Assembly: GCA_956465555.1 (NCBI GenBank)
Contig: OY101120.1
Span: 1,978,001-2,042,000 of the forward strand
Reading direction: 5' to 3'
Length of the DNA stretch: 64,000 bases
Source: Nitzschia sp. pyKryTriq1
Taxonomy: Eukaryota; Bacillariophyta; Bacillariophyceae; Bacillariales; Bacillariaceae
In this document: positions 15,334 through 58,521 of the stretch, in pieces
Layout: each line of letters starts with the position of its first letter
How positions within the stretch are numbered: the stretch's first letter is position 1
The notes under the pieces: generated by a model
The model's database searches: none
What the model was told of the DNA's origin: nothing
Seen by the model: the letters and a program-made list of their open reading frames with translations, nothing else
Translations under genes and position numbers: made by a program

Positions 15334-17670
15334 ATGGACCGCAATAGAGCTCGCTGGCGAGACGATGTGGTGACCGCAGTGATTGAAATCCCTCGTGTCG
15401 ACGATGACATGAAACCATCCCTCTTTTACAACAAGATGGATTACCACGAATTTCAAGCGGCAGAACAACGACGATACGACAAAATGATGATGAAGCAAAT
15501 ACAAAAAATGGTGCAGGATGCCATGGCGCCTCAATTGCAAGAAGCTATAGATAGAGGGGCGACTGCCGAGGAGCTAGAGGCAATGATGCCCCAGACGACG
15601 GAAGCAATCTTTGCTCTTCTAGGGAGCATCCCGGCTCCTGCTATGCCAGCACCTCCCAAGGGCATTGAACAAGAGGTCATTCATCACAAAACTGCTCCAT
15701 CATTTACGTCAAATAATGAAGTATCACCGCCATGTCTGCCAGGGCCCGACAAACCTTTGACGCCCGCAGACACAATTATCAGTGATGATGATATCTATGC
15801 CTTGCTCGGCGTCGACGCTGGCCACGAGGAAACCGAGAAGAAAGAAGAATCATCCAGTCCAAGCTCTGATACTAACCCAGTAGTGGAACCTGATAATGAT
15901 GAATGGGGACCGAAGGAGTCGTCGGAATGCGATGCAGACGATGCGGATGAAGCCGTCGAGGGAAGTGAAGAGCAGCCAGATCCTACTAGCAGTTATAAAA
16001 GTCCACTGGAACTTAGAGCCGAGTCGCGTGAAGCAGAACATGATGACGACTCCTCTTCCTCCTCGTCATCATCATCATCGGACAGCTCTGCAGGCAATGT
16101 GGATGGTAGTGAGAGAAGCGAGGAGCAGCCGGATCCTACTGGCAGTTACAAAAGTCCACTGGAACTTAGAGCCGAGTTGCACGAAGCAGAAAATGATGAC
16201 TCCTCCTCCTCCTCTTCCGCCTCATCATCACAATCTTCGGACAGCTGTGTAGCCAATGTGGATGGTGGTGAGGGAAATGAAGAGCAGTCAGATCCTACTA
16301 GCAGTTACAAAAGTCCACTGGAACTTAGATCCGAGTCGTCGCATGAAGCAGAAAACGATGACTCCTCTTCTTCTTCGTCGAACAGCTCTGCAGATGATTC
16401 TGATGATGTCAAAGAATTGGATTCATCCCCGGAACCACCAACCGAAGCCAACATGAAATCGGACTCGAGCCTCTCCGTTGAGAAGGATATCGGAACCCAA
16501 CCATGCGATCCTGCTTCACACCCGTCCCTAGATGGGTCTATTCAGGACGAAATCAATGAAATGTTCGGGACTTCCATATCGTCTGACATTCATGTTCAGG
16601 ATTTGTTACCGAAATCGAACACCGAGCAAGACAGAAACGGAACAAATACTTCGAAGACACAACACCAGCTGGACAGATGGGAGAGCAGCGATGACGACGA
16701 CGAACCGTTGGAAAATGAGGCAGAAGTACTTTGTGCTAACGAAGAGGAGAAGAAATATTCAAATTTGGAGGAGAAACTTCGTGGATCTTTACCGAAGAGT
16801 TTTCTTTCGGGGCCCAGAAATACTAGGGACTCATTTGCAATATCCAAATTTAAAGAGGACGCCCACGACGAAACACCACAACCTGAGGTACCAACGCCAG
16901 AAGTGGCGGAAAGAAGAGCTCGGAACAAAGCAACACTACATTTAAACGACGAAAATACTCCAAAGGTAGAAAAGACGGCGACGTCTGCTGCTGAACAACT
17001 TTGGGGCAATGCGATGGCAAAAGAAATAAAAACCGATCGCACCAGTAATGTAGATTCAGATATTTCAGTGGAAAATGGTTTGGGACAAGAACAACACGGC
17101 AAGTCCCCAGTGACACGCCGCAAGCTTTTGAGAGCGAAGCTACAGGGACAGGTCGCACAGGTACCCAGCCCTTTGCCACCACCGAAGTCGGGCAGTGATG
17201 TACCCACAGAGACGGAATCGACACTTGACGCCCGAGCATCACCCAAATCACGCAGGAAAGTACCGTCGAAAAGTGCATCGGAATCTGGCCCGACGTCAGT
17301 AGCTAAGGTACGGCGACAGCCGCGATCTACAAGTGTAGACGGCAAAGGGGGGTTGCCAACTGATCGGGAAAGGAAGGCCGGCCGGAAACCCAACCCGCCA
17401 ATGCAGAGAAGTAGCTCCGATCAAAACTTAGCAAAAAGAAGCAACGACGAAGAGGATCGTAAGATCGTCATTGTCAATGGAAAACGATTGGGCCAGGATC
17501 CTGACAAAGCTCGTCGTAAGAGAGAGGCTGCCAAGAAGAAGGTCGTCCATCGAAAGGATTACGAAGTGCGAGGAGGCTGGGGGAATCCATTAGACTTCGG
17601 CGCAGGTCCGACTGGCCCCTCGCAGAAAGCAGGAAGGAAAACTTCCGCGAAAACGGAGACCAAGACCTAA
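15334..17670 (+). CDS. Acidic, serine-rich repeat protein of a diatom family
   Basis: A 778-aa protein; the ATG at 15334 is chosen (an in-frame GTG lies 33 nt upstream). The N-terminal 60 residues are ordered and charged: IEIPRVDDDMKPSLFYNKMD then YHEFQAAEQRRYDKMMM. This resembles a short diatom motif set in which an IPR-x-D segment is followed by an aromatic pair and a helical D/E-R segment. Residues 212-365 hold three tandem copies of a roughly 51-residue unit that begins at 212, 263 and 316 with EEQPDPTSSYKSPLELRAES and ends in an acidic Ser run. The C-terminal third is basic. A Ser-rich, highly charged composition suggests a disordered scaffold or phosphoprotein. I do not recognise a function. 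Confidence 0.8.
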   Translation: MDRNRARWRDDVVTAVIEIPRVDDDMKPSLFYNKMDYHEFQAAEQRRYDKMMMKQIQKMVQDAMAPQLQEAIDRGATAEELEAMMPQTTEAIFALLGSIPAPAMPAPPKGIEQEVIHHKTAPSFTSNNEVSPPCLPGPDKPLTPADTIISDDDIYALLGVDAGHEETEKKEESSSPSSDTNPVVEPDNDEWGPKESSECDADDADEAVEGSEEQPDPTSSYKSPLELRAESREAEHDDDSSSSSSSSSSDSSAGNVDGSERSEEQPDPTGSYKSPLELRAELHEAENDDSSSSSSASSSQSSDSCVANVDGGEGNEEQSDPTSSYKSPLELRSESSHEAENDDSSSSSSNSSADDSDDVKELDSSPEPPTEANMKSDSSLSVEKDIGTQPCDPASHPSLDGSIQDEINEMFGTSISSDIHVQDLLPKSNTEQDRNGTNTSKTQHQLDRWESSDDDDEPLENEAEVLCANEEEKKYSNLEEKLRGSLPKSFLSGPRNTRDSFAISKFKEDAHDETPQPEVPTPEVAERRARNKATLHLNDENTPKVEKTATSAAEQLWGNAMAKEIKTDRTSNVDSDISVENGLGQEQHGKSPVTRRKLLRAKLQGQVAQVPSPLPPPKSGSDVPTETESTLDARASPKSRRKVPSKSASESGPTSVAKVRRQPRSTSVDGKGGLPTDRERKAGRKPNPPMQRSSSDQNLAKRSNDEEDRKIVIVNGKRLGQDPDKARRKREAAKKKVVHRKDYEVRGGWGNPLDFGAGPTGPSQKAGRKTSAKTETKT

Positions 17671-40648: not shown

Positions 40649-43316
40649 TGGTTGTTTGTACCGGTACGTGTAGTGGGGCAAAACTCACTAAAAATGGGCA
40701 CACTTTGTACGAGTAGATAATGTAGGTGTGGTGTGGTGCCAAGTTCCAAAGTGTCAATAATCAAGCCCAATGCAAGACTCAAATCAATCGAGGATGGCCT
40801 TTTGTTGTTCGGCAAGAACAATCAATCTCAAATCACAGAAATACCACGCTGTAGATCGTATGTCAGAACACAAATAATACCGTACTGCACGCGGAGTTTT
40901 ATGTAGGGCTATGTATTGCGTTACTGCCTTCTTCTTGTAGTCGACTTGCATGTATGGGCCGCCTCTGTTCTCGTAACTATTAACACCAGCAGTGCCAGTG
41001 CTGTAGTCTGTGATGAGGATGATGCATTATTTTTTCCAAACTAGTAGACCATCGTCGTTCGTCGTCGTTCGTCGTCGCCGTCGCCGCCGTCTCGTCGAGA
41101 GAGAGACATGTACAATCAATCAGAATTTGTTTGGTGCGTGATTCGGCCCAGTACAAGTACATACTGTACAAGAGTTCCCATTCCAGTAATGCTCGGACTT
41201 TTGGGCGAGGAGTCTACAGTTCGCTAATCCCTATGTAATGGGGTCGCGAGCAGGCCATCCCTAAATAACCTTATGATAAATATACCGATTTGAATGCGTA
41301 ATTGTCGCACGCATCATTAACTAATATAAGTTTATGGATGCTTAAATGTCGCACTGCGTTAAATAGATCATGTGTGTCACATGAGAAAGATACCTTTATT
41401 AATAGTGCAAGCACATCGATGATGAATGATGGATGGAATGGAAGATATTTGAACCATGAAAACAGGTTTTGTTGCAACAGTACACCACCAGAAGTACATT
41501 TGCCGTCGACAATTCAAACAACAAGCGCAGTATGTATTGTTTTCACAAACCAATTCTACTAGTAATAGAAACTACTAGTCGGTACTGTACCGGTACCGTA
41601 CTGTACTCATACTGGTACAAAATGACCCGGAAATGAGTGGTATGGCATATGATCGTGATAGTCAAACCGCCCTTTGGTTGCAGTCGAGTAAATCCAGTCT
41701 CATCCGTTGAGACTTGAATGTAATAAACAGATACTTATATGAATATAAAAAGAACCTCTATTGATATATACATGTCTGAATAAAAATCCCGTTGATAGAG
41801 ATTAGCGAACTGTAGAGTCGTCGAAGGGAAAGGAGAGGGAGCATCCCCCGCGGAGCGGGGCAATCCGCACCGTTAGTTGCACCAGTACGTACGTACGAGT
41901 ATGATATGTACGTACCGGTACCTGGTACGCATTAGGGCAGGTTGAGCCATGTCCAGGAAAATGTCGCAGTTTAACGGTTTATTTTTGTCCACACCGACGG
42001 GCGCGCGATGTACACGCAGTACCAGGATAGGCGAACGCCATAGTGGAACGAGTGCACCAAACCATAGGAAATATGATCCGCACATTTCAAGTCCAAGACA
42101 TGGACGACGAAGACCCTCTAGCAGGAATCCTCAACGCAGTAGCCTTCGCAGTAAGAGCTACCGTCCACACCACAACTCAAGCAACCCCAATGCAACTCGT
42201 GTTCGGACGAGACGCTATTATGAACATCCAATTCGAAGCAAATTGGAAACTGATCAAGGATCGCAAACATTGTTATCCACAACACTCCCTGCGGCGGCCG
42301 AGTCTTCTTACCCCCCCAAAAGCCAACGTCGTCCGATGGGATGCCTGATACCATCGCGATGTCTTTCGACATGACCGAAGAGGAAGCGGCAATTTTTACT
42401 ATAGTAATCAGCATTCTTCTTCGGACCCTGCCCCGTATGTAGATATTGCGCTTTGTATGTTGCTTCTTCGTGCCGAATAAAGCTGTATGTTCGAACATGA
42501 GAGCTCTTTTTTATTGTTGGACCAAAAATGTCCAATCTACGTAAAAATCCGGATCCTCTCTGTACCGAGATTGCTGGATGCGGAGGGTAGTACCCGGTAC
42601 GTGTACTATTAGTACTTTTGGTGCAGTTGGTTGGTAGTCTACTCGTATCATCCAGGCAGGATCGCCTCCGCAGCCACCAACAGTAGGCGTCGTCCTCGTC
42701 GTCTCGCTGCTGCGGCTGTTCTTCTTCTTTATTGTCACTTCTTGATGAGAAAGAACTACTATTGTTCTTAGCTCTAGTAATAACTGGAATATACTCTACT
42801 AGCTAGAGTGGTCTTCGTCTTCGTTCATTAAATTAAATACATGTATTATTGCTATGATGGTGATGACATAGTAGACACACCAGCACCTCGTAAGGGTGGT
42901 GGTGCGACAACAAGATAACGATTCTTCGTGCTCGCCCAGCAGCAGACGACGCATCGGCTGCTGCTGGTACTACCTGTAGTAGTGGTGTTGTGTGTGTCGT
43001 TGCACCCTATCATGCATTATGACTACCCACCCGGTATTTCTGCTGTTCGTTCTTCTTGTTGTTGTTAAAATTCTCAAAATGCGTGTGTGCTGTTGTTGTG
43101 TCCGATCATCATTGCTTATGGGGCTGTCCACCACAAGTGAATGCCCTCGTGGTGCCGGTATAGTTATAATTTTTGGTCTTGATGCTGTCGTTCTTCCTAT
43201 TTCTCCTTTTGTTCAGTGTTGGCGGTGCCGCCGCTGCTCCTCTTGCCGCCGGTGGTTCCTGGTCGTGGTTATCCTCACAATACTCTTACTGCCGGCCTAT
43301 CGGTGGCACTCTTGAA
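40649..43316. other. Long intergenic region with a retroelement fossil
   Basis: No host gene is seen in 2.7 kb. The contents are a CGTCGTTCGTCGTCG stretch (about 41050-41095), a CCCCGCGGAGCGGGG hairpin (41846-41860), palindrome strings (41580-41625, 41885-41935) and the integrase fragment listed separately. Confidence 0.5.
41990..42350 (+). mobile_element. LTR-retrotransposon integrase fragment (fossil)
   Basis: About 100 residues of an integrase domain are readable on the plus strand, including ANAIVERVHQTIGNMIRTFQ and TTTQATPMQLVFGRDAI, which are typical of the C-terminal part of the catalytic core in LTR retrotransposons of stramenopile genomes (Ty3/Gypsy-like by motif; the family assignment is tentative). 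No gag, protease, reverse transcriptase or paired LTRs are seen nearby, so this is a short, broken remnant of moderate age. Confidence 0.75.
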
Positions 43317-47389: not shown

Positions 47390-49005
47390 TTATCCCAAAG
47401 ACGCAAGAGCCATTTTGGCACCTAGCAAGCCCATTCCGACACCCAACACAGCAGATCCCGCAGCGAACTTCACTTCTCTCTTTTGCCCAGCCGTAGCGTC
47501 GGCCTTGTTCTTGATGGCCTTGCGGAACATTAGGAATGGGAACACATATATCAGAGCATTTCCGAGTGTGGCGCCACCAAAAGCCAGGACGAAGCTGACA
47601 TCGGGAATCACCAGAGCTGCAAAAGTCACCAGAGACAACAAAGTCACCGTCAAGAAATTCTGGCTCTTGGGTGAAGCCTTCAACTTGAGCAAGTCGATGA
47701 CACCATCTCGAAGCCCCACAAACGCAAGAGGGTAGGAAAATACCAACGAGACTGCCACGGCAATGCGGGAGAGTGACATGAGAGAATCTTTGGTAGAGTA
47801 GTTGTTGAGAATGAGTCCGCTGGAAGCACTGCCAAATGTCAAGAATCCCATTGCAGCAATCAAAGCAAAGATGCAAATCGAGACGCCAAAGCTAGTCGAG
47901 ACGACTTTGTAGAAATTGGGCAAGGTTCTTTCTTTCAATTCATTGTAGAACTATAAACATCAATAAAGGAGCAAACGGTCGCGGGTTAGTGAATTCTCCT
48001 TCGGCGGCTGCTTGCCGAATGCCATGCATGATGAGATTGCACTGGTATTGTTAGAGAGCTTACTTTGGGGGCATTGAAATGGGCCATGTAGGCGGTGCTG
48101 AGCATTCCGACCAAAATAGCGGCGGAAGGAGTCATAATTCCTTCGACTCCTACCGATCCAAACGCAGGACGAAGGGCGGGAGCACAGTCGGCGGCAAACT
48201 TTCCAGCAGGTGCCACATAGGATTTGCCGAGGAAACGAATCAACATGGCTACGGCTGTGTAAATCATTCCAAGACTTCCCACCAACGAAAAGGGGGCCAA
48301 GCTTGAGAGGTTTTTCAACAAGCAAAGGGGCAAGAGGACGCCCGTCGTTAGCCCGACCAACGCGGGGACCTTGGCCACAGTGAGACCGGCAGTGGCGAAC
48401 AGGCTCACAAACGTGTCTCCCAAAATCATACTGTACGCCAAGATGGCAGCAAATGTTTTGAAAGTGACCGCAACCGCAGGAATCCAACTCGACGATTTTC
48501 CAACCGTGGCGCTCCAAGCATCCCGATACGACTTGGTGTTCGTGTATGCACAGCAACGTCCAATCAAGGAAAATCCATAACCAGAGAGTACGCCGATGGT
48601 AGCGATCAAAGCGATAGCAGGCACCACTGCCGATGGGGCGTTAGCAAATGCTGCAATACCAGCAGGAAGACTCAAGACTCCGGCTCCGACGATCGACTTG
48701 ACCAGATTGAAGCAGAGTTGGGTGACACTGGCACTTCCTGGAGGCACGGCACTTGCCTTTCCTTCATTGTCTCCACTGCTGCTGCTGCTGCCGCCGTCGC
48801 CTTCTGACACAGAAGCCGTCATGTACAAAGGTTTCTTAGCGTCCACTAGTGGTACCGAAGACGACATCATTGAACGAGCCGCCCGGGATCTGACAACGGT
48901 GGGAACCGACGTCACGAGAGGAGTCCATTGAGCTGTTTGCGTTGGCGCAAACGCCAGGGCAGTAGGCACGAGGGCCAGCAAGAAAATAAGGGATCCACGA
49001 AGCAT
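47390..49005 (-). CDS. Plastid-targeted amino-acid permease (AAAP type), paralogue 1
   Basis: Two exons on the minus strand: 49005-48064 and 47950-47390 (113-nt GT-AG intron). The product is 500 aa. Residues 1-18 are a signal peptide with ALA-FAP at 16-21, the diatom ASAFAP plastid signal with Phe19 at +1. The core of about 11 helices starts with LVKSIVGAGVLSLPAGIAAF, the unwound first helix of Aa_trans/AAAP carriers, and includes SGYGFSLIGRCCAYT, PLCLLKNLSSLAPFSLVG and STAYMAHFNAPK. It probably moves amino acids, perhaps aromatic ones, across a plastid envelope membrane; the substrate is unknown. It is head-to-head with paralogue 2, 636 bp apart. Confidence 0.9.
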
Positions 49006-49641
49006 GATCCGTCACTTCAAATGCGAGTACTTGTATTTATAATTGGTGAAGTGTCAGCTGAAAGTGGTTCTGTCGTCGTCGTCGTTGCGGTACAAGTAGT
49101 CGTCGATGTGCCCGATGCCCGATGCCGGAGGCCCGAGGCCCGAGACGACTCCTCGACAGAGGCGACGAGAGATCGAAGCAGGACCCAAAAGGGCGAAGGA
49201 CCGCCGTCCATCATCCGACAACAGATGATTTTCCCACGTCTTTGGATCTGCGGGTTCTCAAATCGGATCCTATCATCCCAAATTCCCTTTGGAATCTTTG
49301 GATCTTTGACTTTGGGAGTGTTTTCGATGACACGAGGGAATCCCAGTTATCGGAGGCTCTCATTTTTGTCCGTAGAGATTGAAAAAACTAGAAAATGCAC
49401 CGATCGCGTGCCGATCGCGTGCCGATCAGATCGCTCTGCGTTCCTCAACGAGGCGAAGCGCCCACTCCGCGAGATATATCCATCGATCGCATCGTCGCGA
49501 TGTTTTGGATTTGCAGGCCTTCGTGGTACGTGTACCGTACAAAAGCTAAAACCTACCGGTCCCGGTGTCATCAATCTAAAAAATCTCGACGGCAAGTCAA
49601 GTCATTTTATTTCTCCCTCCTTTCACCATTGGAATAAGACC
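49006..49641. other. Divergent spacer between permease paralogues
   Basis: A 636-bp head-to-head spacer, presumably a shared promoter region. It has repeated GATCGCGTGCCGATC strings at about 49398-49430 and no gene. Confidence 0.5.
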
Positions 49642-51302
49642 ATGAAGTTTCTTCGAGTTTGCCTCCTTCTACTGGCTTCGTTCCAAGTAACTTTGGCGTT
49701 GGTGACGCCAAAGTCTCACTTGGCCGTCAACAAGCCGAGCGCATCTTCCTCGGTCATCGGGCCCAAGACGAGATTGGGAGCGGACGCGGTGTCGGCTGAA
49801 GTCCCGAGAGGAGGAGAGGGCGGTGGAACTGCCTCCATTCCTAGTGAAGTCTTCAATCTTATCAAGTCAATCGTCGGAGCCGGAGTCTTGAGTCTTCCTG
49901 CAGGCAAGTAGTGGCTACGTATATTTATTATGTCTGGATATTGATTGATTGATTGATTGATTGATTTGAATTCTCAAACTTTTTTTGAAATTGTTATTCA
50001 TGTTATTGTTATTGTTATTTGCAGGTGTCGCCGCTTTTGGCAATGCACCGTCTGCAGTGATCCCTGCTGTCGCTTTGATTGCCCTCATGGGTACCATCTC
50101 TGCTTACACTTTTGGATTGATTGGCCGCGTCAATCGGGCCACAAATACGGCAAGTAGTGGCTACGTATATTTATTATTTCTGGATATTGATTGATTGATT
50201 GATTGATTTGGATTCTCAAACTTTTTTTGGAAATTGTTATCCATATTATTGTTATTGTTATTTGTAGGTGTCGTACTCGGATGCTTGGGATGAAACGGTC
50301 GGAAAGAAATCTTCCTTCATCATTGCATTTTCGTGCTTCATTGATTGCCTTTTCGGAAATCTCAGCTATTCCATGATCCTGGCGGATACCATGGTCAACC
50401 TCTTGGCCAGTGTGGGAGTAGGTGTCACCCGTACTCATTCCCTTCTTGGGGTAACCGGTATTGTGCTTCTGCCCCTTTGCCTTATGAAGAATTTGGCCAG
50501 TCTTGCCCCTTTTTCGTTGGTGGGGATAACTGGAATGTTGTACACCACATTTGCGATGGTCATGCGATACGTCAGTGGCTCTTACGCCGCTCCGGATGGA
50601 AGGTTCCTCGCTACAGCACTGACGGCCCCTGTCTTTGGTGTGGCTGGTGCCAAAGCTGTCATGAGCGCCAAGTCTCTCATCCTGACATGCATGCTCAGCA
50701 ATGCTTACATTGCCCACTTTAACGCTGGCAAATATTTGGCGGAACTCAAAGACAATACTTTGGGCCGTTTCAACCAGGTCATTGGATGGAGTTTTGGAGC
50801 AGCGATCCTTCTGTACTCGACCATCACTGCCGTTGGATTCTTGACCTTTGGTGCCGCCTCGAATGGTCTCATTTTGAACAATTACTCCAACCAAGATCTG
50901 TTGATGAGCTTCTCCCGCATCGCAGTGGCCATCAGTGTCACTGGATCGTACCCTCTTCTATTCGACGGAACGCGAGATGGCCTACTTGATTTGTTCAAAG
51001 TCTCCAAGGCCAAGCGTGACAATGCTCTGATCAACAAGTACACCTTTGGGATCCTCGCATTGACTACGTTTGTGGCCTCCAAACTCACTGATCTTGGTCT
51101 TGTGGCCAGTATCGGTGGAGCCACCTTTGGTACAGCATTGGTGTTCATCTACCCTACTCTCATGTTCTTGAAGGTTCAAGCCAAGAGGGGCAAGTCGGGT
51201 TCGTTCGAAAGTACTCTATGTAAGGTCATTGCCGCGTTGGGACTCGTCATGGGGGCTATTGGTACCAAGCTAGCATTCAATGACGCTTCTATGGGACATT
51301 AA
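49642..51302 (+). CDS. Amino-acid permease (AAAP type), paralogue 2, with twin GC-AG introns
   Basis: Three exons: 49642-49903, 50025-50149 and 50268-51302. The product is 473 aa. A signal peptide (MKFLRVCLLLLASFQVTLAL) ends in TLA-LVTP, where Leu replaces the Phe of paralogue 1, so plastid import is less certain. The core has IKSIVGAGVLSLPAG, VAAFGNAPSAVIPAVALI, DAWDETVGKKSSF, PLCLMKNLASLAPFSLVG and SNAYIAHFNAGKY. Both introns start with GC instead of GT. No GT site near either restores frame, and the chosen joins reproduce the paralogue sequence (LSLPAG-VAAF and NT-VSYSDAW, against NTKSYRDAW). The two introns are near-identical to each other and absent from the other two paralogues. Confidence 0.9.
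49904..50024 (+). repeat. Twin intron copy 1 (GC-AG, 121 nt)
   Basis: It starts GCAAGTAGTGGCTACG and ends TTATTTGCAG. A GATT microsatellite lies in the first half. It matches copy 2 at 50150-50267 except for five substitutions, a one-base indel and a four-base indel. The identity continues through the next six exon bases (GTGTCG). Confidence 0.95.
50150..50267 (+). repeat. Twin intron copy 2 (GC-AG, 118 nt)
   Basis: It starts GCAAGTAGTGGCTACG and ends TTATTTGTAG, one GATT unit shorter than copy 1. The polarity is the same as copy 1 and 125 bp of exon lies between them. Confidence 0.95.
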
Positions 51303-54030: not shown

Positions 54031-56175
54031 ATGATGAAGTCTTTCTTCTTGCTTGCCTCGCTGCTTGTCGGCTCCTCCAGTGCCCAGGCTGTCGGAAATC
54101 CTGTCGAAGCCGATGTTACTCCCATTGAGTACATGGACGGAAACCACACTCTCATGGGACATTTGGCTGTTCCCGACGGCGATGACATGATGTTGCCTGC
54201 TGTTATCATCATTCCGTAAGTCCATCATTTTTTTCCAAATAGTGCCAACAATCTTTATTGGAACAATACAAAGATCTCGTCGTCGAACGCATACTCATGA
54301 AGATGTTCTACTTTTTCTCGTCATTTCGTATGTCTCTTCTTTTAGTGACTGGGATGGTGTCAACGAGTACGAACACGTCCGAGCCACCTTGGTCGCCCAG
54401 GAGTGGGGATATGTCGGGTTTGCAGCAGATATTTATGGAGCCGACTTGCAATTTGTTGAAAACACGACCTTGCGGGGTGAGTTGGCCACGTTTTACCGCT
54501 CCAATCCCGAGGTTTTTGGGAGCCGTATCCGCACTGCTATTGAATACGTCAAGGCCCACCCCAAGGTTGATCCTGAGAAGGTGGCTGTTTTTGGCTACTG
54601 CTTTGGAGGTACCGGTGTGTTGCAATACGGGCTTTATGGAAACGACGACGTGAATGCCCTTGTGTCCTTCCACGGTGGGCTTTCTTTTTTGCCCGAAGAG
54701 CCCCTTCCCTTCGGAACCAAGCTTCTTGTTCTATCGGGAGGAGAAGACGATGCCGTCACTGATATCATGGATCTTGAAATTACCTTGGATAGTGTTGACG
54801 CTCCTTGGGAAATCACTCGATACTCCAAAATTGAGCATGCTTTTACTGTTTTCGAGGATGGTACGAATAGTGAACGACCACAAATCGGAGGTATCATTGT
54901 GGGTCGTGATTTTCTGACATTATTTCGTGTTTTTTACTATCTCTGGTAGACCGCTACAGCCCGTGGGTGGACATGCGCTCCTGGGAGTCGGCCTACGAAT
55001 TCATTACCGAAAGTTTTGGTATGATGGAGTTTACTTCGGCCCGACCCGACTCCATCAATACTCTGGAGGTTGACTATGTTGACGAGACCGACGGTAAGGA
55101 GCTTCGGGGACACTTGAGCCTGCCTTCCGACAAGTGGGCTCGTCCTCTTCCAGCCATTGTTATTATGCCTGACTGGGATGGAGCCAACGAATACGAACGC
55201 GAACGAGCCACCGCGTTGGCCGAGTTGGGATACGTCGCAATGGTTGCTGACATCTATGGTGCTGACAAGCAGTTTGTTGAGAGTTTCGATGAGCGTGGTG
55301 CCCTAGTCGGAGAGTATGCCGGAAACCCTGAGCTATACATGTCTCGTATGCAAGCGGCTATCGATCAAGTCAAGGGATTGACCGGAGACGTGGATGCCAA
55401 CGAAGTTGGAATCATTGGATACTGCTTTGGAGGATCGGTAAGAATGACTAAATCAAATACGCAGTGCACCGGAGCCCATGTCACTCTGACTGATCTCTCA
55501 TCGTTTCCTCATTTTTGTATGTAGGGTGTCATCTTGTACAGTTTCTTCAGTGGTGCCGACGCGAAGGTTGCTGTTGCCTTCCACGGAAGCTTCTCGGCTC
55601 TGCCCCCCGTGATGGTGGACGAAATCTCACCTTACTTGTTGGTGTAAGTTGTTCTATCTCGTCTGGTTCCTTATGATTCCGTGTCGCTGCATTACATTGT
55701 CTCACCTCAAATCCATGTTTAGTCTTTCTGGTGGCGACGACGGTCTTCACGGAAACCAAACCATTATGGAAGATGCCTTCAACAGCGGTAATGCTGACTG
55801 GGAAATCACCCGCTATGCTGGTGTTGGTAAGTTGGCCCACCCTCGTATGATCTTTTTTGGACTGCGTCGACGCTTGATGCGTCCAGAATCGTGATTTTCT
55901 TCGTCTGACCAATCGCATCCCATTGCATCATTTTTATAGGTCATGGCTTTACTGCCTTTGAAAGCGACGCCTACAACTTGGTTGCAGATGCTCGTTCGTG
56001 GGAGAGCATGCTGACCTCCTTCCGCGAATTGCTACCCATTCCCCAAATGGTTGATGGAGAGATGGGGGCGTCAACTGGAGCCCCAACCATGGAGGACACT
56101 TCCTCGGGTGCCTCGAAGTGGTCGATTTCCATCGGTGGTGTCGTGGCCTTGGTTGCCACCGTCCTGGCCTTGTAA
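54031..56175 (+). CDS. Secreted tandem dienelactone hydrolase with GPI-like tail
   Basis: Six exons: 54031-54215, 54346-54860, 54950-55437, 55525-55643, 55723-55826 and 55940-56175; all introns are GT-AG and all joins are in phase. The product is 548 aa. Residues 1-18 are a signal peptide (MMKSFFLLASLLVGSSSAQA; a second Met follows the first). Two dienelactone-hydrolase-type alpha/beta-hydrolase domains follow. Each has P-DWDG-NEYE, ADIYGAD, the nucleophile elbow GYCFGG (Cys147 and Cys392), an Asp in LSGGEDD or LSGGDDG, and a His in EHAFTVF or GHGFTAF. Both triads look complete. The tail SSGASKWSISIGGVVALV has small residues then a hydrophobic end, which fits a GPI-attachment signal. It is probably a cell-surface esterase/lactonase; the substrate is unknown. 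Confidence 0.9.
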
Positions 56176-56823
56176 ATACAGAAAATTACATTCAAGTGGA
56201 AGGAAGATGTTTGATATACACGTACAGTACGAACTCGCAGATTGCCAAGCAATTTGCTTCTTTCTGCTCTAGTGCATGATAATACTCTAGATGCATATTT
56301 AAAAATTCGTATGATACTGTATGCTGTATGCGTGCTGAGTGGGTAGACTTTTTACATCCTTATCCTTGTACCAGGTCTACGGGTATGGTGTACCGTACGT
56401 ACTACTGTACCGGGTACCGCCCCCGCCGCGCTCCCCGCCCCCTGCTGTGTGTCCCGTCCCCCTCCAGCACGGTACGAACCGTAAGGAGTAGACAGACGGT
56501 ACGGCGTACCAGGTACGGGCCGGTAGTACTCGTACGGTACCGGTACCTGGTACCGGTACAGTACTGGGATGTACGTAACTTGATTGGTCTGGCCTGCGTC
56601 AGATCATCGAAAAGCGGATCCATCGCAGATCAACCCGGAACTTCCGATCGATAGTACGTGTACTGCTGCGCGATGACGACGACGACGACGCGGACGATGG
56701 AGATGCCGGACCTTTCGCCTTTTATTTGCACAACCATCACTTGTGGTGCATCGGTCGTTTTTGGCATTAGCACACAATCTTTGTTCCTTTTGTCTACCTC
56801 TAGGTCAACAGTTTTCAGCAGTG
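56176..56823. other. Intergenic with palindrome cluster
   Basis: No gene is seen. GTAC/ACCGGT strings run from about 56370 to 56570 (for example CGGTACCGGTACCTGGTACC). The last 100 bp lead into permease paralogue 3. Confidence 0.5.
56370..56570. repeat. GTAC/ACCGGT palindrome cluster
   Basis: Repeated GTACCGGTAC-type palindromes are read directly between the hydrolase and permease genes. Confidence 0.7.
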
Positions 56824-58521
56824 ATGAGAGTAGCACTTGCTCTGTTGGTGGCGGCGTTGTCGTCTCCGGCGATTACCGCCGAAAAGCCGAAGTCTTGGGC
56901 TGTGATTGGATACGAAAAGTTCAAAGACCCCCCAGCAAACCGTCGCAGGCTTCCAAAAAAGGCTAATGACGCCCAAGTCTCGGATGCTCCCGCCCCAAGT
57001 CCAGTTGGCAAGGCGCTTCTAGGAGTCAGTGCTGCCACTGCCGCGGCCTTCGTGGGAGCAAGTTTGCTCGGTGGTGACGAGCCCAGATCCGAGCGTGCTT
57101 TGGTCCAAGCATTCAGCAAGCAAGTGGTTGTGGTGAAGAAGAATGCTGAGGACCAGACAAATGAAGAGGGTGCTTCTATCCCCAGCGAAGTCTTTAATCT
57201 CGTAAAGGCAATTGTAGGCGTCGGTGTCCTTAGTCTCCCTGCTGGAGTAGCAGCTTTTGGCAGCGCTCCATCCGCGTTCATTCCAGCCGGAATCTTGATT
57301 ACCGTCATCGGAATCTTGTCTGGTTATGGCTTTGCCTTGATTGGACGAGTTTGTGCGTACACTGGCGCCAAGAGCTACCGTGAAGCTTGGAGCCGCACTG
57401 TGGGCGAAAATACCTCCTGGATCCCCGCTTGGTCGGCGACCTGCAAAACCTTCATGGCTTGTCTTGCTTTTTCCATGGTGTTGGCAGATACCTTCTCCAG
57501 TCTGTTGGAAACAGGAAGAAACGGAACTCTTCTCTCTGTGACGTTGCTGGTCTTGACCCCCCTTTGCTTGATGAAAGACCTAAAATCATTGGCCCCATTC
57601 TCTCTCTTGGGAGTAATGGGAATGACCTACACTGCAGTGGCGATGACTGTCAGGTGGCTCGATGGAAGCTACAGTATGGATGGCGAACAAGTGGGCACTT
57701 TGGCCGCAGAAGTAGCAAAGCATCTTCGACCCTCCTTTGGAAATTTGGGAGTTCAGAGCGTTTTCACGCCCAACGCTTTGATATTGGTGTGCATGCTGTC
57801 GACTGCTTACATGGTACGTGCGTCCGTTCGGAATGTCCGGGCCAACTATGCGAGTGACAGAGGAAAGGATGATCGTCGTCGTCGTCATCGTCGTCTCAAT
57901 TTCTATTTGTTTGTCTTTTTCTTGCTATTTCCACAGGCCCACTTCAATGCTCCTAAATTCTATTTAGAATTGAAGAACAACACTATCAAACGTTACAATG
58001 CCGTTGTTTCTTGGAGTTTCGGTCTTTCTATTTTCTTGATGGGATTCATTAGCATGGTTGGATTTTTGACCTTTGGTAAATCGTGCGATGGTTTGGTCCT
58101 CAACAACTATGCCGGAAGTGACATTTGGATGGGTTTCAGCCGCGTGGCTGTGGCTGTCTCGTTGGTCTTTTCCTATCCCTTGGCCTTTACTGGATGCCGC
58201 GATGGATTCATGGATTTGGCGCAAATTTCCATGGAGTCACGAACTTCGGGACTGATGAACCTAGTCACCATTTCCTTGCTGGGCGTAATCACCTTCATGG
58301 CCTGCTCGTTGACGGATGTCAGCTTTGTTTTGGCTTTTGGAGGAGCTACATTGGGTAATCTCTTGACTTATGTATATCCTGCTCTCATGTACCGTGCTGT
58401 TGTCCGTCAACAAGGACGTAAAGGTGAAGGCTTTGGAGTTGCTGTAGCTACAGGATCCGGAGTTCTTGGAGCAATCATGGGTACCATTGGCGCTGCCATG
58501 GCGTTGAAGAGTTTGGATTAA
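56824..58521 (+). CDS. Amino-acid permease (AAAP type), paralogue 3
   Basis: Two exons: 56824-57813 and 57937-58521. The product is 524 aa. The 123-nt GT-AG intron is in frame and free of stops, so a read-through product would also be open, but paralogues 1 and 2 run straight from STAYM/SNAYI into AHFNA, which supports splicing. The N-terminus is a signal peptide (MRVALALLVAALSSPAITA) with no Phe at the cleavage site. An extra hydrophilic and Ala-rich region of about 110 residues precedes the core, IPSEVFNLVKAIVGVGVLSL. The core has SGYGFALIGRVCAYTGAKSY, PLCLMKDLKSLAPFSLLGV and FGGATLGNLLTYVYPALMYR. Location may be an outer plastid or endomembrane; the substrate is unknown. Confidence 0.9.
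   Translation: MRVALALLVAALSSPAITAEKPKSWAVIGYEKFKDPPANRRRLPKKANDAQVSDAPAPSPVGKALLGVSAATAAAFVGASLLGGDEPRSERALVQAFSKQVVVVKKNAEDQTNEEGASIPSEVFNLVKAIVGVGVLSLPAGVAAFGSAPSAFIPAGILITVIGILSGYGFALIGRVCAYTGAKSYREAWSRTVGENTSWIPAWSATCKTFMACLAFSMVLADTFSSLLETGRNGTLLSVTLLVLTPLCLMKDLKSLAPFSLLGVMGMTYTAVAMTVRWLDGSYSMDGEQVGTLAAEVAKHLRPSFGNLGVQSVFTPNALILVCMLSTAYMVRASVRNVRANYASDRGKDDRRRRHRRLNFYLFVFFLLFPQAHFNAPKFYLELKNNTIKRYNAVVSWSFGLSIFLMGFISMVGFLTFGKSCDGLVLNNYAGSDIWMGFSRVAVAVSLVFSYPLAFTGCRDGFMDLAQISMESRTSGLMNLVTISLLGVITFMACSLTDVSFVLAFGGATLGNLLTYVYPALMYRAVVRQQGRKGEGFGVAVATGSGVLGAIMGTIGAAMALKSLD

What the first reader, a model, noticed from the sequence alone, without database searches (positions are those of the whole stretch)
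49903..50273. Two consecutive near-identical GC-AG introns in one permease gene
Introns at 49904-50024 (121 nt) and 50150-50267 (118 nt) differ by only five substitutions and two indels, share the rare GC donor, and continue identical into the next six exon bases (GTGTCG). Neither position carries an intron in the two neighbouring paralogues, and their own introns are elsewhere. The residue after copy 2 is Val where a paralogue has Lys, so the insertion appears to have carried its downstream exon bases. This points to very recent intron gain, either by copying one intron into a new site or by an introner-like element that inserts as a ready-made intron.
Basis: partly seen in the sequence, partly recalled or inferred. 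Interest (0 to 1): 0.88.

Follow-up and report, generated by a model that had tools for sequence, protein, structure and literature searches.

The report
Intron copied within one diatom gene
In a diatom gene for an amino-acid transporter, an old intron appears to have been copied to a new place 125 bases further on, at a short matching sequence, giving a rare clear view of how a new intron can arise.

Summary
Two GC-AG introns (121 and 118 nt; five substitutions, two indels) interrupt one PF01490 transporter gene; the 473-codon frame needs both removed. The interpretation changes in three ways. (1) Intron 1 is old: a paralogue on another contig has an intron at the same position and phase, and 12 relatives' frames begin to match at or within six residues of that point. 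(2) Only intron 2 is new: all 122 listed relatives covering its site are continuous there; the telling ones are 37 partial frames, five of them in the supported clade of 8 that holds the window gene. (3) All 7 other clade members already have Val at the site, so GTGTCG was probably there before the intron, not brought by it. One DNA search and three pattern searches find the sequence nowhere else in the 40.65-Mb genome, so this is not an introner family. Best reading: intron 1 was copied into a second G|GTGTCG site of its own gene (runs of 7 or more matching bases: 3 of 1361 other coding positions, this site included). It resembles the four same-gene near-identical intron pairs of Oikopleura. 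RNA or DNA route is undecided; splicing is inferred, and relatives' DNA was not seen.

The parts
49642..49903 (+). exon 1 of the transporter gene, ends ...CCT GCA G (phase 1)
   Evidence: spliced frame of 473 codons
49904..50024 (+). intron 1, 121 nt, GC-AG; old position, the likely template
   Evidence: same position and phase as the C5 paralogue intron; 12 relatives' frames start matching at residues 82-88
50025..50149 (+). exon 2, 125 nt, starts GTGTCG, ends ...AAT ACG (phase 0)
50025..50030 (+). GTGTCG after intron 1 (with the preceding exon G: GGTGTCG)
50150..50267 (+). intron 2, 118 nt, GC-AG; the new copy
   Evidence: protein continuous at this site in 122 of 122 listed relatives that cover it
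50268..50273 (+). GTGTCG after intron 2, encodes Val130-Ser131; probably older than the intron
   Evidence: Val at this place in the 7 other members of the clade
50268..51302 (+). exon 3 with stop codon
49788..49794 (+). third GGTGTCG in the coding sequence, without an intron
   Evidence: CDS position 147

Best explanation
Intron 2 is a recent copy of the old, resident intron 1 of the same gene, gained on the terminal branch that leads to this diatom. Shown: near-identity; no other copy found in the genome; an intron at site 1 in a paralogue; protein continuity at site 2 in relatives, including partial frames that look unspliced. Inferred: the copying was guided by a short homology, GGTGTCG (intron after its first G), present at both places before the event. 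A nascent strand (repair DNA or cDNA) that had copied GTGTCG at site 2 re-paired with GTGTCG at site 1, copied intron 1 to its 5' end, and was rejoined to exon 2 at the G. Because intron 1 brought its own donor, branch point and acceptor, the new copy could be spliced at once and the protein stayed the same length. Separate odds: gain by copying of intron 1, about 0.9; homology-guided copying, about 0.6; DNA repair versus reverse transcription, undecided.
For: Two copies only: DNA search with intron 1 and its flank, and 5' end, 3' end and middle patterns with up to 3 mismatches, 2 places each; the reversed-pattern control gave 1, 0 and 0 hits. Site 1 old: the C5 paralogue has an intron after CCT GCA G, same phase; of 16 listed frames whose match begins at residues 71-88, 12 begin at 82-88 after a non-matching stretch of 2-19 residues; six of these 12 are in the tree, spread over it, P0007 inside the window gene's clade and P0056 on the far side of the midpoint root. 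Site 2 new: 122 of 122 listed proteins covering it are continuous; 37 of them are partial frames starting at residue 71 or later, as expected of frames called on unspliced DNA, 23 of the 37 from clusters whose longest contig exceeds 4 kb (counted). The window gene sits in a clade of 8 (support 98/96); 7 of 7 others have Val130, 5 of them partial frames. Target homology: other than site 1 itself, runs of 7 or more bases matching the intron-1 junction occur at 3 of 1361 coding positions, runs of 6 downstream at 2, site 2 being one of them in both counts.
Against: No DNA of relatives could be read, so Val130 = GTG and Ser131 = TCG before the insertion are inferences from protein; that the partial frames are unspliced is inferred from their starts and contig lengths. 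Two clade members (P0001, P0002) are full-length on contigs of about 1.5 kb, probably transcripts, and say nothing about introns. Intron 1 is not universal: the neighbours and the C11 paralogue read through site 1, and some full-length relatives on long contigs (for example P0033, P0063, P0068, P0073) may lack it, so repeated gain at site 1 is not excluded. The 7-base match was noticed first and then counted, so about 0.002 is rough. The exact 5' edge at the donor is not explained by DNA copying without selection. No RNA reads, no read coverage.
Confidence: 0.6

Rival explanations
1. Intron transposition by reverse splicing: excised intron 1 inserted into its own mRNA at a site like its own exon junction, the RNA was reverse transcribed, and the cDNA recombined with the 3' part of the gene, leaving intron 1 in place.
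For: Both edges fall exactly at splice sites and no residue was gained or lost relative to listed relatives; site 2 has G before and G after the intron; same-gene near-identical pairs in Oikopleura were explained this way (passages of PMC3879977).
Against: The match runs six bases into the downstream exon, further than the spliceosome is known (recalled) to read; the upstream exon shares one base only.
Confidence: 0.3
2. Introner-like mobile element that inserts as a ready-made intron.
For: Near-identical introns with GC donors, a trait of some introners (PMC9860276 passages; PMC3879977 passages).
Against: Two copies in one gene only; site 1 is an intron position shared with a paralogue and relatives; no inverted repeats of 20 nt or more nearby; no direct repeat of more than 1 nt at the edges of copy 2. 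Copy 1 does show a 5-nt match.
Confidence: 0.03
3. Two old introns made alike by gene conversion.
For: Near-identity of neighbouring introns can arise this way.
Against: No sign of an intron at site 2 in any of 122 listed relatives that cover it, five partial frames of its own clade included.
Confidence: 0.04
4. Assembly artefact: one copy is a misassembled duplicate.
For: Coverage cannot be seen here.
Against: Seven differences between the copies, different exon sequence on both sides of each, and both must be removed for an intact frame.
Confidence: 0.03

Closest known systems
Near-identical intron pairs of Oikopleura dioica (Denoeud et al. 2010, known here only from passages of PMC3879977)
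   Same: both members of a pair in one gene and nearly identical; non-canonical splice sites noted especially among its new introns
   Different: diatom; one member sits at an old position here, so the direction is known; a 7-base target match is visible (not compared with the Oikopleura pairs)
Intron transposition in Mycosphaerella (Torriani et al. 2011, known here from passages of PMC3443670 and PMC3488318)
   Same: an existing intron copied to a new place
   Different: there among unrelated genes and with large families of similar introns; here one copy within one gene
Introners (PMC9860276 passages) and Micromonas introner elements (PMC3879977 passages)
   Same: near-identical introns; GC donors frequent in some families
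   Different: families of 5 to over 2000 copies, and 59.2% of 130 assessed families with end repeats; here two copies and no such repeats at the new one
Daphnia intron gain by break repair (PMC4202315 passages)
   Same: recent gain in one lineage; repair-based copying is possible here too
   Different: 33 repeats of exon ends of 4-12 bp recorded there, and gains independent of each other (PMC3879977 passage); here a copy of a resident intron with 1 nt at the edges

Membership tests
near-identical intron pair by within-gene intron copying (Oikopleura type) | two nearly identical introns in one gene | tested here: met
near-identical intron pair by within-gene intron copying (Oikopleura type) | one site newly occupied | tested here: met
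   122 of 122 listed relatives continuous at site 2 on protein level, 37 of them partial frames; clade; no relatives' DNA seen
near-identical intron pair by within-gene intron copying (Oikopleura type) | RNA intermediate (reverse splicing) | not testable with these tools
   no RNA or experimental data
introner | family of several similar introns (at least four in PMC9860276) | tested here: not met
   two places only
introner | target-site duplication or terminal inverted repeats (59.2% of assessed families) | tested here: not met
   no inverted repeats of 20 nt or more in 49500-50700 (shorter ones not tested); copy 2 edge match 1 nt; copy 1 has a 5-nt TGCAG match, but its exon half is also in the C5 paralogue
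intron from tandem genomic duplication | adjacent duplicated exon segment with AGGT | tested here: not met
   copies 125 nt apart, exon 2 not duplicated, no residue gained
intron gain by staggered-break repair | direct repeat of exon end at the far edge | tested here: not met
   1 nt at copy 2
spliceosomal intron | spliced in RNA | not testable with these tools
   frame and homology only

The most novel reading that the evidence does not exclude
The exact 5' edge at the donor together with the six-base match downstream is the footprint of reverse transcription on a splicing intermediate: the cDNA jumped by GTGTCG homology onto an intron-1 lariat still joined to exon 2, ran off at the intron's 5' end, and returned to the mRNA. 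If so, short exon motifs repeated in a transcript would predict where new introns land.
Probability: 0.15. Interest if true: 0.8.

Novelty: new member of a known kind. Interest (0 to 1): 0.52.

Why it matters
Recent intron gains with a known source, a known direction and an intact target context are few: a 2012 review counted 14 unambiguous transposition events, in Mycosphaerella and Oikopleura, counting only EST-supported gains with novel splice sites (PMC3443670, table seen in passages). This case adds a diatom; widespread gain in the diatom Thalassiosira was inferred by Roy and Penny 2007 (title seen in the reference list of PMC3488318). It yields a testable rule: new intron copies land where the exon repeats the bases next to the old intron.

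Tried and rejected
Introner family: rejected by genome searches. Carried-in Val: rejected by relatives, with the reserve that codons are unseen. Other near-identical intron pairs: looked for only in the window (self-BLAST, E 1e-8, within 4 kb) and in 24 of 39 held loci, 88,257 bases with overlaps counted (the 15 dropped lie in the window's own region). The other repeats that turned up were not examined as introns; this says little about the genome. P0091 starts at the residue of site 2 and cannot tell whether an intron lies there; 14 further hits start after the site; these 15 of 137 were left out of the site-2 count. The homologue lists are capped: 120 shown of 990 and 120 of 749.

Full report
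The observation. They differ by five substitutions and two indels and share one base before and six after. In the whole window, self-BLAST for pairs within 4 kb finds this pair at E 2.5e-46 and two other repeated regions, not examined further. Neither intron can stay without breaking the frame. That they are spliced in life is inferred.

Copy number. A DNA search with intron 1 and its flank finds two places. Patterns for the 5' end, the 3' end and the middle, each with up to three mismatches, find the same two places; the reversed-pattern controls found 1, 0 and 0. The tool skips simple repeats and very common words and calls its counts lower bounds, but a family with intact ends should have shown.

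Intron 1 is old. Of the gene's relatives in this genome, the one on contig C5 has an intron at the same position and phase, after CCT GCA G, with a GT donor. Outside this genome, 16 of 137 listed proteins begin to match at residues 71-88; in 12 of the 16 the match begins at 82-88 after a non-matching stretch of 2-19 residues, as a translated intron end would look. The other four are unclear (two start at 73 after a stretch, two have no stretch). Six of the 12 are in the tree and are spread over it, one of them (P0007) inside the window gene's clade. Against this: the intron is not universal. The two neighbouring genes and the C11 paralogue read through site 1, and some full-length relatives on contigs of 9 kb and more (P0033, P0063, P0068, P0073) may lack it too. 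Repeated gain at this place is not excluded, but loss in some lines is the simpler reading. The neighbours' introns lie further on, seven codons apart from each other (by eye). The seven paralogue donors read by eye are all GT (C5; two in C2; two in C11; the two neighbours).

Intron 2 is new. Of 137 proteins listed in two capped searches (120 of 990, 120 of 749), 122 cover the site, and all 122 are continuous across residues 123-138. The 37 that start at residue 71 or later are the telling ones: they look like frames called on unspliced DNA, and 23 of the 37 belong to clusters whose longest contig exceeds 4 kb (counted). One protein (P0091) starts at the site and 14 after it; they were not counted. 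In a tree of the window gene and 25 of the 137 proteins, chosen by me, the window gene falls in a clade of 8 with support 98/96. Its nearest rows are P0003 and P0006 (that fork 90/90). Five of the other seven (P0003, P0006, P0007, P0008, P0012) are partial frames through the site; P0001 and P0002 are full-length and probably transcripts.

The exon bases. At that residue 13 of 122 relatives have Val, among them all seven other members of the clade; the commonest residues elsewhere are Met (34 of 122) and Thr (23), and Lys is in 2. Val therefore most likely came before the intron. With Met as ATG, Val as GTG is one step away (inference). So GGTGTCG most likely stood at both places beforehand. 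It occurs three times in the coding sequence; the third, at 49788, has no intron. Apart from site 1 itself, runs of 7 or more bases matching the intron-1 junction occur at 3 of 1361 positions, site 2 included. This was noticed first and counted afterwards.

Mechanism. Copying guided by the shared bases explains the choice of site. The exact left edge fits reverse splicing, or run-off at the 5' end of a splicing intermediate, or selection among DNA events. Break repair with staggered ends predicts a repeat at the edges; copy 2 has one base, copy 1 five. I put homology-guided copying first, reverse splicing second.

Comparison. Papers were seen as passages only or as search listings. Oikopleura's four same-gene pairs, out of about 75,000 introns, are the nearest match (PMC3879977). 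In the library searched, 'diatom' with 'identical introns' gave two papers, with 'introner' ten, with 'GC-AG' and 'intron' five, and with 'intron gain' 80 of which 20 were listed; none listed points to such a pair in a diatom by title and abstract start. 'Intron gain' with 'template switching' and 'microhomology' gave two papers, neither about this by title and abstract start. Most subscription papers are not in that library.

Noticed in passing
42031-42348 (+): Frame resembling a retrotransposon integrase/polyprotein fragment (recognised from memory, no search made).
   Followed up: no
15919-16379: Direct repeats about 156 bases apart, 81% alike.
   Followed up: no
54346-54459 and 55170-55280: Two neighbouring stretches 75% alike within open frames, probably tandem hydrolase genes (name from memory).
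   Followed up: no
G000:C1:2959675-2960421 (L037): RuBisCO large-subunit match (PF00016, 84.7 bits) in a 1170-aa open frame, probably a RuBisCO-like protein rather than plastid rbcL.
   Followed up: no
47390-49011 (-) and 56677-58521 (+): The flanking paralogues each show one intron around the AHFNAPK motif, at two positions seven codons apart, where the window gene has none (by eye).
   Followed up: partly
L010:3126-3758: Imperfect repeats of 66-152 bases near a distant paralogue on contig C2.
   Followed up: no
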